Below, piece after piece: positions 33,709 to 40,374 of a stretch of 64,000 nt of DNA. Within the stretch, counting starts at the first letter, position 1, and each line of letters opens with the position of its first letter. Made by a program: the position numbers and the translations under genes. Source of the DNA: Radicibacter daui (GTDB taxonomy: Bacteria > Pseudomonadota > Alphaproteobacteria > Radicibacterales > Radicibacteraceae); contig CP131056.1 of assembly GCA_030657355.1 (NCBI GenBank), positions 3,182,501-3,246,500 of the forward strand, written 5' to 3'. The notes beneath the pieces were generated by a model. It was not told the origin of the DNA, searched no databases, and saw only the letters and a list, made by a program, of their open reading frames with translations.

Positions 33709-34002
33709 ATGGCCACGCAGACCACCATGATTCATGTCCGTGTCGATGACCATCTGAAGACGAAGGCAGCCGACGCATTGGCGACTGTCGGCCTTACCCT
33801 CTCCGATGCTGTGCGCATCCTGCTGACGCGGGTCGCGGCGGAGGGTGGCCTGCCGGCGGGCCTGACCGCCGGTCCGGATGCCTATGACAGCTGGTTCCGG
33901 GCCAAGGTCCAGGAGGCGCTGGCTGATCCGGGCCCCGCCATGTCGCATGAAGACGTAATGCGCGAAGTCCGCGCCCGGATTGCCGCGAAACGCCGTGCCT
34001 GA
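33709..34002 (+). CDS. RelB/DinJ-family antitoxin
   Basis: 97 aa with AGAAGG upstream. The N-terminal ribbon-helix-helix is MIHVRVDDHLKTKAADALAT then VGLTLSDAVRILLTRVA, the classic RelB/DinJ DNA-binding fold. The C-terminal helix (SHEDVMREVRARIAAKRR) would wrap the toxin. It overlaps the toxin gene by eight bases if the toxin starts at GTG. Confidence 0.9.
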   Translation: MATQTTMIHVRVDDHLKTKAADALATVGLTLSDAVRILLTRVAAEGGLPAGLTAGPDAYDSWFRAKVQEALADPGPAMSHEDVMREVRARIAAKRRA

Positions 34003-34270
34003 GCTGGAATGGAAAGCTCCGGCGGTCGCGGACCTTATGGCCATCGTCGATTATATTTCCGACGACAATCCGGATGCGGCGCTGGCCTTCATGGACGAGA
34101 TCCAGAACAAGGTTGGCCAGCTCATTTCCTACCCGAAGCGCTGCCGTCACGGCAGGGTAGACGGAACAAGGGAACTCGTCATTCGACCCAGCTACATCGT
34201 GATCTATGCAGAAACGCCGAGACTCGTGACGATCCTGCGCGTGCTGCATGCAGCGCAAACATGGCCATGA
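33995..34270 (+). CDS. ParE/RelE-superfamily toxin
   Basis: About 91 aa starting at GTG 33995 (an in-frame TTG at 33980 gives 96 aa). Family features: ELEWKAPAVADLMAIVDYIS, NPDAALAFMDEIQNKVGQLI, RHGRVDGTRELVIRPSYIVIY and ILRVLHAAQTWP. ParE members poison gyrase and RelE members cut mRNA at the ribosome; the sequence is closer to the ParE side by eye. The next feature is a broken pepP copy on the opposite strand. Confidence 0.88.
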   Translation: MPELEWKAPAVADLMAIVDYISDDNPDAALAFMDEIQNKVGQLISYPKRCRHGRVDGTRELVIRPSYIVIYAETPRLVTILRVLHAAQTWP

Positions 34271-34297: not shown

Positions 34298-34950
34298 TCA
34301 CAGCGCTGCCGTCGCCACTCTCAGCCACTCCAGCACAGACTCTTCGTCGCTCAACGGGGAGATCTCGTTCCACACCCGGGCGTGATAGGCATCGATCCAG
34401 GCGCGCTCTTCCGGCAGCAGGATTTCGGCGAGGATCAGCTCGCGGCTGATCGGGGCGAGCGTCAGGGTTTCGAAGGAGAAGAAACGTCGCTCGGCGCCCA
34501 CCAGCGCCTCGCACTCTTCCACCGTCAGCAGATTTTCGATGCGGATACCGTAACGGCCGGTGCGGTAATAACCTGGCTCGTTGGAAAGGATCATGCCGGG
34601 CTGCAACGCTACTGTGCTGGCGGCCTTGGAGATACGCGCTGGCCCCTCATGCACGCTCAGGTAACTGCCGACGCCATGCCCGGTGCCATGGTCATAATCG
34701 AGGCCCTGCTGCCACAGGAACTGGCGGGCAAAGGCATCGAGCTGGCCGCCCACCGTGCCGGCGGGAAAACGCACACGGAACAGCGCGATGTGGCCGCGCA
34801 GCACTGCGGTGAGCGGCCCGGCTGCCCACCAACTCCGCTGCATTCTTGCAGGCATTAGACAGGAAGACCGGGTCTATGCCGCGATCAAGCGTGGCACCGG
34901 CCGCCTTGAGGCGGTCGGCAAGCCAGAGCGCTGTGTTGGAGGGATCGACA
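34298..34950 (-). pseudogene. Truncated, frameshifted second copy of pepP
   Basis: Minus-strand sequence here matches the intact pepP at 38433-40235 in two blocks. One block covers the last 165 or so residues (VLRGHIAL to the stop; about 92% identical by eye). The other covers an upstream segment DPSNTALWLADRLKAAGATL then ACKNAAELVG. About 330 nt between the blocks are deleted, removing two metal-binding Asp residues, and the two blocks are out of frame. Everything upstream of the second block (about the first 285 codons) is missing. Homology ends abruptly near 34948, where the AT-rich island begins. Confidence 0.9.
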
Positions 34951-35240
34951 CTGCAACGGGAGCTGGGGCGTGAGCTGCTCATCAAAGGCATCAACGGCAG
35001 TCAGGACTTCTACTTCGAATGCGAACAACTTGGAGAACAGGTTACCAAACGCCCGCATCAGGGCAGAAACATGAAGACAAGAACACTCCTGAAGGCACTC
35101 CGGGACGGTAGCCGCAACCAGCCCGCGGAGGCGCGCAAAACCAACCCCGTCACCGCAGCCGGATCCAAAGGCGGTGACTGTCAGGAAATTACCAGCTCTG
35201 AATATAGCATGTGAATATTCTGCTCAGTACATTTTGGGTT
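34951..35240. other. Island left margin without a supported gene
   Basis: Between the pepP remnant and the methyltransferase stop, base composition falls from GC-rich to AT-rich. A plus-strand frame crosses it, but begins inside the antisense of the pepP remnant and resembles nothing known. No repeat matching the right margin was found by eye. Confidence 0.5.
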
Positions 35241-36032
35241 TTATTTCTTTAACCTAACAACACCAACTGGATTGAGGGGATTATGAAGTATATTCATTTT
35301 CCTAGCCTCAACCACGTCCAATCCTTGTGCCATTATTAACGACAACAAATTCCGACAATGATTAGCAACCAAAGAGTACAGCCTTTGCGCTTCATTTCCA
35401 TACTCAAAGACCGGCTCAACAAAAACAATATCCGACTTGGAAATTCTAGCCATTCCAGACACGGCACGCGCCAATCCATCATTAATCTGTTCAAGCGCAC
35501 AGATTGAGTAGACCACATCATAACTATTACTTTCAATGCCATTCATTTCAGTGGCATCAGCTACCGACAGCGTAGCGCTTCCCAGTCGCCGCCCCCAATA
35601 CTCCGTTCCTCTTTTTATGCGCTCTGCTGAGATATCCACACCAGAAAGCTCAACGGCATCACCAAATGCACTATTAAGCAGCATTAGGTTGGTACCATTA
35701 CCGCACCCGACCTCCAAGATACGGATTTTTCTATTTTCCAGGTTCGATTTTATATTTTCAGATATAACTCTATATACCGAATCCAGATAAGCATTACGAA
35801 CTTCTGAAAAAGGTAGCTCCTGAAGATAACCATTAACTAACGCCCGACAATTTCCATGCTCAAACTGCATCATCTCTCGATCATCATATTGATCGTACTC
35901 ATCCTTAGAACTGTAGAATTTTTTATTTTCTGAAACAAATTTAGCCGATAATATTTTATGCAACGACTTATTTAGTTTTGATTTTCTTTTCCGAAAATAA
36001 AAATATGTTTTAATTTCGTCAACTATCTTCAT
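35241..36032 (-). CDS. Class I SAM-dependent methyltransferase in the AT-rich island
   Basis: 263 aa. SAM-binding motif I is RILEVGCGNGTNLMLL (residues about 104-118), motif II is ELSGVDISAERIKRG, and the post-motif is SYDVVYSICALEQINDG. The N-terminus is very basic (YFYFRKRKSKLNKSLHK). It is the third gene of the island operon: its ATG overlaps the GSCFA stop by four bases. AT-rich codon use differs sharply from the window. Substrate unknown; by context it could modify a glycan or a small metabolite. Confidence 0.85.
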   Translation of the reverse strand: MKIVDEIKTYFYFRKRKSKLNKSLHKILSAKFVSENKKFYSSKDEYDQYDDREMMQFEHGNCRALVNGYLQELPFSEVRNAYLDSVYRVISENIKSNLENRKIRILEVGCGNGTNLMLLNSAFGDAVELSGVDISAERIKRGTEYWGRRLGSATLSVADATEMNGIESNSYDVVYSICALEQINDGLARAVSGMARISKSDIVFVEPVFEYGNEAQRLYSLVANHCRNLLSLIMAQGLDVVEARKMNILHNPLNPVGVVRLKK

Positions 36033-37111
36033 TTCTTAATTCCCTTCAAGATATTTGAAATAAAATCAAAATATCTTTTTCCAGAACCAGCCATACGGGA
36101 AAATTTTGAATTGTCCTCTACGTCTATTATGGATTTATTCTTTTTAACACTGAAGACAGAAGAAAAATAAGAATCACAAAAAGCTTCTGTTATCTTCTCA
36201 ACCGTTTCAGCCCTGACATGACGAACATCGTCAACCCTGAAGCCTTCTCCGGACCACATCACAAACTCGTAGCTAGGCCAGTAATCAACATTATCAAACT
36301 CCTCTCGAATGACGTCGACCGCGGCGCGAAGAATAGATTTCCCTCGCATCGTCGCGGTCACAACATCCACATCTAAAAAAGTACGACTTAACGGTATTGG
36401 CGAGACGGTAAATACGAGCCTCTTTTCCCGAAAGTGATTTTCAAAAATTCTACAAATCCCCCTTAAAGCTTCAAGAACTTCTAAAAAACCTTTATTAGCA
36501 AAAGTCACCCTATCCGCATAAGCTCCATTATACTCAGATATATATCCACCATATTTGTTTAAACAAAACGCCTCCACAAGACCTAGCGTTATTACAATAA
36601 TTTTCGATGTCTCTACTCCATATTTAATATTATCAAACATTATTTCCCTAACAGATAATACATCCTCCACGCTCCTTCCATATAAGGCCCTTCTATAAGG
36701 GTCCCAGAAGCGACGATCCCCATTTTTACAGGTTTCTATAATGGATTCAGGGACGGGGCGCCACAGCCCTACAGCCCCCTCCAAGTCCTGCAGCACCGAA
36801 AAAGGTGTATAGCATTGATAGTGAACACGCTCATCCCACCCCCCCCAACTGGGATTAATTTTTATCTCGGAAGGAAGTAAGCTGGATATTCTTTCATCGA
36901 CTTTGGGGTGGACTAAAATATCACGCCGCTCCAAAACGGACCGAATTTCATTGGCAAAACACGATCCAATAGCAAATACTTCGGTTTCAATATCAAAATT
37001 TGATTTTTTTTCATAAGGAAGATGCCTCGAGTTAACGATTTTCCCCCAACTATTATACTTTCTGCTTTTAGATATATTTTCCGCTCTAACAAAGCTCAGA
37101 CCCGAAAGCAT
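36029..37111 (-). CDS. GSCFA-domain protein in the AT-rich island
   Basis: 360 aa from ATG 37111, preceded by GGGGAG about nine bases away and two bases after the PhyH stop; an in-frame ATG at 37171 would overlap that gene by 58 bp. The family's name motif is intact at residues 49-53 (FAIGSCFANEIRSVL). IIVITLGLVEAF and FTVSPIPLSRTF are the other conserved blocks, and the fold is related to SGNH/GDSL hydrolases. GSCFA proteins are of unknown function and often lie in polysaccharide or secondary-metabolite clusters. AT-rich composition. Confidence 0.85.
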   Translation of the reverse strand: MLSGLSFVRAENISKSRKYNSWGKIVNSRHLPYEKKSNFDIETEVFAIGSCFANEIRSVLERRDILVHPKVDERISSLLPSEIKINPSWGGWDERVHYQCYTPFSVLQDLEGAVGLWRPVPESIIETCKNGDRRFWDPYRRALYGRSVEDVLSVREIMFDNIKYGVETSKIIVITLGLVEAFCLNKYGGYISEYNGAYADRVTFANKGFLEVLEALRGICRIFENHFREKRLVFTVSPIPLSRTFLDVDVVTATMRGKSILRAAVDVIREEFDNVDYWPSYEFVMWSGEGFRVDDVRHVRAETVEKITEAFCDSYFSSVFSVKKNKSIIDVEDNSKFSRMAGSGKRYFDFISNILKGIKK

Positions 37112-37113
37112 TT

Positions 37114-38277
37114 TTAGAGCTCCCCAATACGAGAAATTAGATTTCTTAGATAACCAAACATTCCACGACATTTTTTCTCAGCATTGCCGCCATAATTCAA
37201 GCTGGTCCGTTTCCAAGCCGCCCCTCCGCCATAACGAGCTTCAATCTCTGGAAATCTTGGTATGGGATTAAAATAAAGTGAACTCGCATATTCTATTTGC
37301 AGCATCAATCGATAGCCGGAACGTACCGGTTCTCCTTTATGAAAGCCTCGAGTATTTTCAAAAATTATGGATCCTGCCGGCCCAATTATCTTCCTCACTC
37401 TACTTTTTTCATAACTATCATATACTTCATGATCCTCCAAACGCCGGACGGCCCCCCCTCCAGGTATACGACTTTCATAATCTTCTACTGAGCCCGTGAC
37501 ATAAACATGCGGACCATTTTCTTCATTTACGTCGTTTAGGTAAAAAAATATTTTTAAAAATTTGATAAATTCCTGATCTTGATGAAATTTTTGGGCGTTT
37601 CGATTTTGCGACGAGCTTTGCCTCTTGGCAGTATCGCTGTCCTTGAAGGTCCACCATGCATTAGTTTGAACATGGATGGGCGTAGCGCCGAGAAAACGCT
37701 GAGCGACGCCCAACAAGTATGGGTCAAAAGCGATGTCTTGAAGTATCCTCTCAGATGCAAATGAAGGCATATCTTTGAGCCACCACACTCCCGTAAGAGT
37801 GGAGATGTTTCTTTCTATTGAACCTCCATATTTTGATTTTTTCTGCATTTTATTGTAAAATTTATACTGCTTTAAAATATTCCTTACTTTTGAAATATAC
37901 TCGGTTGGCAAATGAATATCGGATTCAAAAACCCCGTCCTCACGAAGAAAAGCCTCAGGGCGGAAGTTGCTTTTATCGAAATTTGGGAAAATTGAGGGAA
38001 CGCCTGACAGATCCAACCTTTCATTAAACAATTTAGCTATAATATCATTTAATAGGCAGCTTCTATCATAGTTTAGAAAATCTTTCCATTTTAAAGAATC
38101 TGAGAAGTGATTTGTTTCAAAATAACCCTGTTTCAGTTCGGAATTTAGAACACTCAATGCCACAGCACAAAACTCTGCCCCCTCATTCATTGACCCCACT
38201 TTGGAAATCAGAGCGTCATCGAAAGAAAAATTTGGATTTATACTCTTAGCCACCGTCAATAGGTCTTGGATCGTCAT
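37114..38277 (-). CDS. Phytanoyl-CoA dioxygenase-like Fe(II)/2-oxoglutarate oxygenase
   Basis: 387 aa with GAGGGTG before the ATG. The iron triad is visible: His232 and Asp234 in AQKFHQDQEF, and the distal His313 in TRGFHKGEPVRSGYRLMLQ; Arg319 or Arg323 would bind 2-oxoglutarate. The double-stranded beta-helix core spans about 195-330 (FFYLNDVNEENGPHVYVTGS). PhyH-type enzymes hydroxylate lipids, sugars or natural products. The first 160 residues are helical and have no recognised match. First gene of the three-gene island operon; AT-rich. Confidence 0.87.
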   Translation of the reverse strand: MTIQDLLTVAKSINPNFSFDDALISKVGSMNEGAEFCAVALSVLNSELKQGYFETNHFSDSLKWKDFLNYDRSCLLNDIIAKLFNERLDLSGVPSIFPNFDKSNFRPEAFLREDGVFESDIHLPTEYISKVRNILKQYKFYNKMQKKSKYGGSIERNISTLTGVWWLKDMPSFASERILQDIAFDPYLLGVAQRFLGATPIHVQTNAWWTFKDSDTAKRQSSSQNRNAQKFHQDQEFIKFLKIFFYLNDVNEENGPHVYVTGSVEDYESRIPGGGAVRRLEDHEVYDSYEKSRVRKIIGPAGSIIFENTRGFHKGEPVRSGYRLMLQIEYASSLYFNPIPRFPEIEARYGGGAAWKRTSLNYGGNAEKKCRGMFGYLRNLISRIGEL

Positions 38278-38432
38278 GCTTCACCCTCGAAGAAAAACAT
38301 ACATACACAGAAAGCCCTGTTTGCCGATGCATAAAAGAGCCAACCAACGGGCCGCTTCAACATTGTTCCTGCGGCCGATATCCATTGAGCGGCTTATCAG
38401 AGATTATCACCTATCTTTTGCGAACAAGATAC

Positions 38433-40235
38433 TCAACTAAGCTTAATTACCGCCGTCGCCGCCTTCAGCCACTCAAGCACCGGCCCCTCGTCGATCAGCG
38501 GGGAGATCTCGTTCCACACCCGGGCGTGATAGGCATTGATCCAGGCCCGCTCTTCCGGCAGCAGGATTTCGACAAGGATCAGCTCGCGGCTGATCGGGGC
38601 GAGCGTCAGGGTTTCGAAGGAGAAGAAGCGACGCTCGGCGCCCACCAGCGCCTGGCATTCTTCCACCGCCACCAGATTTTCGATGCGGATGCCATAGCGG
38701 CCGGTGCGGTAATAACCCGGCTCGTTGGAAAGGATCATGCCGGGCTGGAGCGCCACCGTGCTGGCGGCCTTGGAGATACGCGCCGGCCCCTCATGCACGC
38801 TCAGATAACTGCCGACGCCATGCCCGGTGCCATGGTCATAATCGAGGCCCTGCTGCCACAGGAACTGACGGGCAAAGGCGTCCAGCTGGCCGCCCACGGT
38901 GCCGGCGGGAAAACGCGCACGGGACAGCGCGATATGGCCGCGCAGCACGGCGGTGAAATGCGCCCGCATCTCTTCCGTCGGCACGCCGATGGCCACGGTG
39001 CGGGTAATGTCGGTAGTGCCGTCCTGGTACTGGGCGCCGCTATCGATGAGGAAAAGCTCGCCCAGCCCCAGCATGCGGTTGCTTTCCGCGCTTACCCGAT
39101 AATGCACGATGGCGCCGTTGGGCCCGCTGCCGGAGATGCTGTCAAAGGAATTGCCACGAAAGAGCGGGTCTTCGGCACGGAAGGCATAGAGCCGGTCCAC
39201 CACCGTCATCTCGTCAAGCCCGCCGCCGGCCGCCGTCTCTTCCAGCCAGTGGAGGAAGCGGGCCATTGCCGCACCATCGCGCCGGTGCGCCGCCCGGCAA
39301 CCGGCCAGCTCCGCTGCATTCTTGCAGGCCTTGGGCAGGGAGATCGGGTCCATGCCGCGCTCAAGGGTCGCGCCAGCAGCCTTCAGCCGTTCGGCAAGCC
39401 ACAGCGCGGTATTGGAAGGGTCAATGCGCACCTTGAGGGCCTGCGTGCCCAGATCGTCCAGCACGGCGCCCAGCGCGTCCGGCGCGCGCACGCTGACACG
39501 GTTGCCGAGCGTGGCCTTTACCGCCGGCGTCAGCTTGCCCTCGGCTACGAACCAGTCGACGCGCCCGTCGGCATGCAGCACGGCGAAAGAAAGCGGTAGC
39601 GGCGTGTTGGGCACATCGGCGCCGCGCACATTGAGAAGCCAGGCAATAGCGTCCGGCTGGGTCAGCAGCGCGGCGTGGATACCGTCAGCCCCGAGCGCCC
39701 CGCCGATGGCGGCGCATTTGTCCGCGGCTTCCTGCCCGGCATATTCGATGAGCTGCGGCACGATGGCGGCCATCGGCGGGGCAGGCTGGTCTTCCCAGAT
39801 AAGATCGATCAGGTTCTCCGCCACCGGCACGGCGCTCACGCCCGCCCGCGCCAGCTCCGCCGTCATCCAGTCCACCTGGCTCACGGTGAAGAGCCACGGG
39901 TCAAAGCCAACCTTCGCCCCGGCCGGCAAGGTGGTGGCAAGCCAGCGGGCCGCCGGCTCCTCCACCAGGTGGTGGATTTCCCAATCCGCCGCATCCACCT
40001 GCTGGCCGGCCTGCAGGGTGTAGCGCCCATCCACGAACAGGGCCGCCCGGTCCATCAGGATGGCCGCGACACCGGCCGAGCCGGTAAAGCCGGAAATCCA
40101 TTCCAGCCGCTCGGCTCGTGCCGGCACATACTCACCCTGATGTTCGTCAGCCTTGGGAACGAGAAAGGCCGCAAGCCCGCCGCTGGCCATCAGGGCACGC
40201 AGGCGGGAAAGGCGGATGCGGATCGTATCGGTCAT
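38433..40235 (-). CDS. pepP: Xaa-Pro aminopeptidase (aminopeptidase P), intact copy
   Basis: 600 aa from ATG 40235 (MTDTIRIRLSRLRALMASGG). Three-domain long-form M24B peptidase. The C-terminal pita-bread domain has the five metal ligands: Asp in FLIDSGAQYQDGTTDITRT (two), His in GTGHGVGSYLSVHEGP, and Glu in SNEPGYYRTG and YGIRIENLV. It removes N-terminal residues before proline. Its last residues (AVIKLS) are not shared with the broken copy (TAAL), and come from AT-rich DNA, so the 3' end appears to have been rebuilt at the island junction. Confidence 0.92.
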   Translation of the reverse strand: MTDTIRIRLSRLRALMASGGLAAFLVPKADEHQGEYVPARAERLEWISGFTGSAGVAAILMDRAALFVDGRYTLQAGQQVDAADWEIHHLVEEPAARWLATTLPAGAKVGFDPWLFTVSQVDWMTAELARAGVSAVPVAENLIDLIWEDQPAPPMAAIVPQLIEYAGQEAADKCAAIGGALGADGIHAALLTQPDAIAWLLNVRGADVPNTPLPLSFAVLHADGRVDWFVAEGKLTPAVKATLGNRVSVRAPDALGAVLDDLGTQALKVRIDPSNTALWLAERLKAAGATLERGMDPISLPKACKNAAELAGCRAAHRRDGAAMARFLHWLEETAAGGGLDEMTVVDRLYAFRAEDPLFRGNSFDSISGSGPNGAIVHYRVSAESNRMLGLGELFLIDSGAQYQDGTTDITRTVAIGVPTEEMRAHFTAVLRGHIALSRARFPAGTVGGQLDAFARQFLWQQGLDYDHGTGHGVGSYLSVHEGPARISKAASTVALQPGMILSNEPGYYRTGRYGIRIENLVAVEECQALVGAERRFFSFETLTLAPISRELILVEILLPEERAWINAYHARVWNEISPLIDEGPVLEWLKAATAVIKLS

Positions 40236-40374
40236 CTCGGGGGCGGGTCCTGAAGCTCGGGCGGCGGGATGGAGGCTTGCCATCCCTCTTGCGCCGACCT
40301 TAAGTCAGAGCATGGGGCAAGCGCCACCCCGCCATCATCAGGGGCGCCAGATCAAAGCCCGAGGAAAGAGCTGG

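What the first reader, a model, noticed from the sequence alone, without database searches (positions are those of the whole stretch)
35241..38277. PhyH oxygenase - GSCFA - methyltransferase cassette
Three tightly coupled genes (2-bp gap, then 4-bp overlap) combine an Fe(II)/2OG oxygenase with all ligands, a GSCFA protein of unknown function, and a SAM methyltransferase. No transporter, glycosyltransferase or peptide precursor is included. This combination suggests a compact modification pathway that hydroxylates and methylates an unknown glycan or metabolite, with GSCFA as a hydrolase or acyl transferase. The grouping is seen; the pathway is inference.
Basis: partly seen in the sequence, partly recalled or inferred. 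Interest (0 to 1): 0.75.

Follow-up and report, generated by a model that had tools for sequence, protein, structure and literature searches.

The report
Foreign three-gene molecule-tailoring cassette beside pepP
A small set of three imported genes, an oxygenase, a serine-esterase-type acyl enzyme and a methyltransferase, sits beside a broken second copy of a household peptidase gene; it probably adds chemical decorations to a surface sugar or small molecule, but the trio was not found together in any other genome searched.

Summary
Three minus-strand genes lie at 35241-38277: PhyH-type Fe/2OG oxygenase, GSCFA protein, class I methyltransferase. They overlap or nearly touch, and each start has a Shine-Dalgarno-like stretch. 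They are about 40% G+C (GC3 0.36-0.37) in a 63% G+C window, so they are foreign.

The cassette lies between intact pepP and a broken second pepP copy (92.5% identical over 505 bp). Their mismatches fall mostly on third codon positions, so the copies diverged as working genes. This points to import by recombination at pepP.

The trio is not conserved. Samples of several hundred Alphaproteobacteria and the 80 best GSCFA loci recovered from about 85,000 species gave no second case. One locus (L055) has GSCFA, an adjacent methyltransferase and a nearby PhyH in a glycan locus, but its methyltransferase and PhyH are only remote relatives.

The GSCFA model has an SGNH fold closest to carbohydrate O-acetyl esterases and transferases, with canonical Ser-Asp-His residues. 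A 2025 paper shows another GSCFA protein acting in O-acetylation of a dioxygenase-made hydroxyl, supporting "hydroxylate, then acylate"; that enzyme belongs to the other half of the family. Substrate and pathway remain inferred.

The parts
37114..38277 (-). PhyH-type Fe(II)/2OG oxygenase, 387 aa; ligands H232, D234, H313, R323; Shine-Dalgarno-like GAGGGTGAAG before ATG
   Evidence: closest relative 45% identical over 198 aa in G274
36029..37171 (-). GSCFA (PF08885) SGNH-fold protein, 380 aa from first ATG (360 aa from the better-supported ATG at 37111); Ser70/Cys71, Asp315, His318
   Evidence: model pLDDT 75.5, pTM 0.77; SGNH matches
35241..36032 (-). class I SAM-dependent methyltransferase, 263 aa, no specific subfamily
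   Evidence: nearest relative in the sample 33% (G079), in an unrelated neighbourhood
38433..40283 (-). intact pepP (Xaa-Pro aminopeptidase, M24), directly upstream of the cassette on the same strand
   Evidence: GC3 0.80
34308..34946 (-). broken second pepP copy: 34308-34812 matches the pepP 3' end (92.5% of 505 bp), 34807-34946 matches an internal part (81% of 140 bp), the stretch between is lost; mismatches by codon position 7/7/24
34947..35214 (.). unassigned junction segment between remnant and cassette; 56 bp resemble (84%) a site next to an IS3-like transposase gene elsewhere on the chromosome
   Evidence: meaning uncertain
38278..38432 (-). 155-bp gap between pepP stop and PhyH start, low G+C; no promoter-like match, one weak terminator-like match

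Best explanation
A horizontally acquired tailoring operon, brought in by recombination at pepP. Most likely order of work (inferred): PhyH hydroxylates a substrate carbon using Fe(II), O2 and 2-oxoglutarate; the GSCFA protein uses its SGNH Ser-Asp-His residues to put an acyl (probably acetyl) group on, or take it off, a hydroxyl; the methyltransferase methylates a hydroxyl or amine. No protein has a membrane segment and the cofactors are cytosolic, so the substrate should be a cytosolic sugar nucleotide, a lipid-linked glycan intermediate or a small molecule; a surface glycan is favoured. Shown: gene order, families, active-site residues, SGNH fold model, foreign composition, pepP duplication. 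Inferred: shared substrate, reaction order, glycan target.
For: Operon anatomy with a Shine-Dalgarno-like sequence at each start. G+C 0.39-0.40, GC3 0.36-0.37 in all three genes against GC3 0.80 in pepP. pepP duplication whose two copies differ mainly at third codon positions. SGNH fold: best aligned structures are peptidoglycan O-acetylesterase Ape1 (Z 11.9), acetyl xylan esterase, sialate O-acetylesterase, PatB and OatA. Precedent: GSCFA protein PipG is needed for the O-acetylation that follows dioxygenase PipE (PMC12828459). DxxH-type GSCFA relatives lie beside RgpF, GT61 and sulfotransferases (L058), polysaccharide export genes (L054) and, in L055, galE-like epimerase, a glycosyltransferase/sulfotransferase protein, an adjacent methyltransferase and a nearby PhyH. 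Polysaccharide pyruvyl transferase is the commonest immediate neighbour family of GSCFA (7 of 66).
Against: No other genome holds the trio. The operon has no glycosyltransferase or transporter, so the target pathway would have to be elsewhere in the genome. PipG appears to belong to the other half of the family, works with PipD and PipF (no counterparts here), and its cysteine was the residue shown to matter. Genomes with both GSCFA and PhyH (G121, G163, G210) carry them on different contigs.
Confidence: 0.45

Rival explanations
1. The cassette tailors a small molecule or peptide, as in detoxin/rimosamide/pseudotetraivprolide pathways, rather than a glycan.
For: In those clusters a GSCFA protein and an Fe/2OG dioxygenase are paired (PMC12828459, PMC9503745); L071 shows a GSCFA gene with a TauD gene and a large NRPS-like ORF beside it.
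Against: No NRPS/PKS gene next to the window cassette. The window GSCFA falls in the DxxH half of the family, the NRPS-linked ones in the other half. The oxygenase is PhyH, not TauD.
Confidence: 0.2
2. The three genes are independent passengers that landed together on a foreign fragment and share no pathway.
For: The trio was not found elsewhere; the nearest PhyH relative sits beside a serine recombinase with unrelated, changing cargo; the nearest methyltransferase relative has neither partner.
Against: Tight overlap, matched composition of all three genes, and the analogous GSCFA-methyltransferase pair with a PhyH nearby in L055.
Confidence: 0.27
3. A serotype-conversion-like cassette whose selected role is to alter a phage or host receptor on the cell surface.
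For: Foreign, compact and inserted beside a chromosomal gene; the modification chemistry would fit surface antigens. Inference only.
Against: No glucosyltransferase/flippase genes, no phage genes nearby, no relative found in phage or viral collections, no membrane acyltransferase.
Confidence: 0.08

Closest known systems
PipE + PipDFG of pseudotetraivprolide biosynthesis (Pseudomonas entomophila, PMC12828459)
   Same: Fe/2OG dioxygenase makes a hydroxyl, then a GSCFA-containing complex is needed to O-acetylate it
   Different: TauD- rather than PhyH-family oxygenase; PipG's Cys47/His51 spacing fits GSCFAxH, the window protein has GSCFAxE plus DxxH; PipD and PipF absent here; methyltransferase absent there; NRPS/PKS context
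L055, uncultured bacterium ErkenSummer_bin-3013 glycan locus
   Same: GSCFA (27% identical) followed after 23 bp by a class I methyltransferase, PhyH gene about 3.8 kb away
   Different: PhyH is on the other strand with other genes between; PhyH and methyltransferase are only remotely similar; lies among glycosyltransferase, epimerase and sulfotransferase genes
SGNH carbohydrate O-acetylesterases/transferases (Ape1, PatB, OatA, CE2/CE3 esterases)
   Same: predicted fold and position of catalytic Ser and Asp/His
   Different: about 3-15% identity; those named act mostly outside the cytosol, the window protein has no hydrophobic signal or membrane segment
PhyH beside large serine recombinases in G274
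   Same: closest PhyH relative (45% over 198 aa), mobile surroundings
   Different: cargo differs, no GSCFA or methyltransferase next to it

Membership tests
GSCFA family (PF08885), SGNH clan | family profile over the curated cut-off | tested here: met
   114.5 bits against cut-off 25
GSCFA family (PF08885), SGNH clan | GSCFA block I motif and SGNH fold | tested here: met
   G69-S70-C71-F72-A73; model residues 50-340 align to SGNH enzymes, Z up to 11.9, rmsd 3.6 over 193 residues; Foldseek E-values just above 0.001
GSCFA family (PF08885), SGNH clan | block V Asp/His (DxxH) | tested here: met
   D315 and H318; 48 of 103 aligned rows, the window's included, have DxxH without the block I His
PhyH family (PF05721) | profile over cut-off | tested here: met
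   31.8 bits against 22
PhyH family (PF05721) | HxD...H iron ligands and 2OG-binding Arg | tested here: met
   H232, D234, H313, R323
PhyH family (PF05721) | double-stranded beta-helix fold | tested here: inconclusive
   single-sequence model failed, pLDDT 31.6
class I SAM methyltransferase | motif I and family profile | tested here: met
   VGCGNG at 108, Methyltransf_25 4.5e-13; no NCBIfam subfamily reaches its cut-off
PipEDFG-type hydroxylation/O-acetylation module | TauD dioxygenase plus PipD, PipF and GSCFAxH-type PipG in an NRPS/PKS cluster | tested here: not met
   PhyH not TauD, position 75 is Glu, no NRPS/PKS or further partner genes in the cassette
surface-polysaccharide gene cluster | glycosyltransferase, polymerase or export genes at the locus | tested here: not met
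   nearest flanking genes with matches are pepP, a toxin-antitoxin pair, a peroxiredoxin-like protein, a LysR regulator and a sensor kinase; the rest of the window was not scanned with Pfam
large-serine-recombinase element | recombinase gene and attachment sites | tested here: not met
   no recombinase among the ORFs scanned in or beside the cassette

The most novel reading that the evidence does not exclude
A minimal, mobile three-enzyme decoration unit in which a PhyH oxygenase creates a hydroxyl on a cytosolic glycan precursor, a GSCFA enzyme of the canonical-triad type esterifies it, and the methyltransferase caps a neighbouring group. This would give the DxxH half of the GSCFA family its first function and show that oxygenase-then-GSCFA chemistry extends beyond NRPS products.
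Probability: 0.2. Interest if true: 0.6.

Novelty: new variant of a known kind. Interest (0 to 1): 0.36.

Why it matters
GSCFA proteins occur in about 8% of the sampled Pseudomonadota genomes (33 of 398); a 2022 review lists no known activity (PMC9487903) and the only experimental lead found here is one 2025 study. A self-contained operon that couples a canonical-triad GSCFA protein to an oxygenase and a methyltransferase is a compact test case for what this half of the family does. The pepP remnant also gives a clear example of foreign genes arriving next to a core gene together with a second allele of that gene.

Tried and rejected
Anti-phage defence: no meaningful PADLOC match, only generic methyltransferase hits. 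Phage origin: no PHROG match for GSCFA or PhyH, no phage record for PhyH, no viral contig. Plasmid origin: only about 26-30% matches to GSCFA or PhyH alone, none to the methyltransferase. Conserved operon: not found. Single-sequence PhyH model failed. Junction segment 34947-35240: no plasmid match. Empty-site comparison with close relatives was impossible: all relatives held share only the class. PDB sequence searches gave no relative of GSCFA and only E about 0.02 for the PhyH profile, to an oxidase/hydroxylase.

Full report
OBSERVATION. Three minus-strand ORFs occupy 35241-38277: a 387-aa protein with a PhyH domain, a GSCFA-family protein and a class I methyltransferase, all over Pfam cut-offs. 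The second and third genes overlap by 4 bp. All three genes have G+C 0.39-0.40 and GC3 0.36-0.37, against 0.634 for the window and GC3 0.80 for pepP. The low-G+C block ends close to the three genes on both sides.

Upstream on the same strand is an intact pepP (38433-40283). On the far side of the cassette, 34308-34946 is a broken second pepP copy: its 3' 505 bp are 92.5% identical to the intact gene, and a 140-bp internal part is 81% identical. The homology begins near the pepP stop codon. Of 38 mismatches in the 505 bp, 24 fall on third codon positions and 7 on each of the others, which is what two separately functional genes show, not a decaying tandem copy. The simplest history (inference) is that foreign DNA carrying the cassette and a pepP allele recombined at the resident pepP, leaving the remnant; which copy is resident cannot be told without relatives, and none close is held. 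A RelB/ParE-type toxin-antitoxin pair (33709-34270) follows the remnant.

ACTIVE SITES. PhyH keeps H232, D234, H313 and R323. GSCFA keeps G69-S70-C71-F72-A73, D315 and H318. The methyltransferase keeps the VGCGNG motif but reaches no specific NCBIfam subfamily cut-off. None has a strongly hydrophobic 19-residue stretch (maximum Kyte-Doolittle mean 1.64), so cytosolic location is likely (inference).

STRUCTURE. The GSCFA model (35-sequence alignment, pLDDT 75.5, pTM 0.77) matches SGNH enzymes: Foldseek's list is led by a putative hydrolase and a GDSL esterase at E about 0.001, and VIA-align gives Campylobacter peptidoglycan O-acetylesterase Ape1 Z 11.9, acetyl xylan esterase 11.3, PatB 10.3 and OatA 9.5. 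A shared fold does not show the reaction. The PhyH model without alignment is useless.

IS THE TRIO CONSERVED? GSCFA relatives were found in 12 other of 289 sampled Alphaproteobacteria-class genomes at weak identity, mostly about 26-36% over the matched part; PhyH relatives in 24 others of 385 and a few more in the phylum sample; the methyltransferase in one other of 385. Where one genome has both GSCFA and PhyH (G121, G163, G210) they lie on different contigs. Among the 80 best GSCFA loci from the genome collection, profile searches of the flanks found PhyH in one only, L055. There GSCFA is followed after 23 bp by a methyltransferase, PhyH lies about 3.8 kb away on the other strand, and the locus holds an epimerase, a glycosyltransferase and a sulfotransferase domain. 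Its methyltransferase and PhyH share only short, weak similarity with the window's. A further 29 GSCFA loci had neither partner within the short flanks held. So the trio is so far unique to this genome.

CONTEXT OF RELATIVES. Immediate same-strand neighbours of GSCFA in the 80 loci are most often polysaccharide pyruvyl transferases (7 of 66), followed by methyltransferases (3) and glycosyltransferases. L058 has RgpF, GT61 and sulfotransferases; the Polaromonas plasmid locus has polysaccharide export genes. The nearest PhyH relative (45% over 198 aa) is next to a large serine recombinase in G274, in three copies whose cargo between PhyH and the recombinase differs.

LITERATURE. A 2022 review lists GSCFA as an SGNH family without known activity or structure (PMC9487903). 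[quoted passage not shown] Detoxin-like clusters also pair a dioxygenase and a GSCFA gene (PMC9503745).

TWO HALVES OF THE GSCFA FAMILY. In 103 sequences, 50 have His four residues after the motif Cys (GSCFAxH) and no block V His, 48 have DxxH and no such His, and one has both; a second sample of 25 new sequences gave 16, 3 and 2, with 4 having neither. The window protein is in the DxxH half (support 96/80, but on a long branch that joins another long branch). The NRPS-linked GSCFA proteins (L071, L072) are in the other half. PipG's Cys47/His51 spacing fits that half (inference from the paper's numbering). The PipE-PipG precedent therefore supports the logic, not membership.

MECHANISM. Most likely an imported tailoring operon: hydroxylation, acyl transfer or removal, methylation, on a cytosolic glycan precursor or metabolite (confidence 0.45). 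The order and the shared substrate are inferred. The main rival is three unrelated passengers.

VERDICT. Real, foreign and tidy, but its combination is not supported by conservation; interest moderate.

Noticed in passing
L033-L134, L206-L234 (GSCFA sequences); window 36029-37171: The GSCFA family divides into proteins with His four residues after the motif Cys and proteins with a block V DxxH His; few have both (1 of 103, then 2 of 25 new ones). This looks like a relocated catalytic histidine and was not seen in the papers read.
   Followed up: partly
L173:7486-11590, L174:1-2401, L175:68-3838 (genome G274): Three diverged copies of a PhyH gene followed by different cargo (unknown 205-aa protein; nothing; phosphoribosyltransferase-like plus DprA-like) and a large serine recombinase, with DUF2924 upstream in the complete copy: a likely mobile element family with changing cargo.
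   Followed up: partly
33709-34270: RelB/PaaA2-like antitoxin and ParE-like toxin pair directly next to the pepP remnant.
   Followed up: no
34987-35042: 56 bp 84% identical to a site beside an IS3-like transposase gene at C1:821914-821969 of the same genome; possible insertion-sequence trace.
   Followed up: partly
L051:5785-6750: A PhyH relative (29%) lies next to nodD2 and nifHDK on a Rhizobium symbiotic plasmid, with similar hits on many rhizobial plasmids; annotated only as hypothetical.
   Followed up: no
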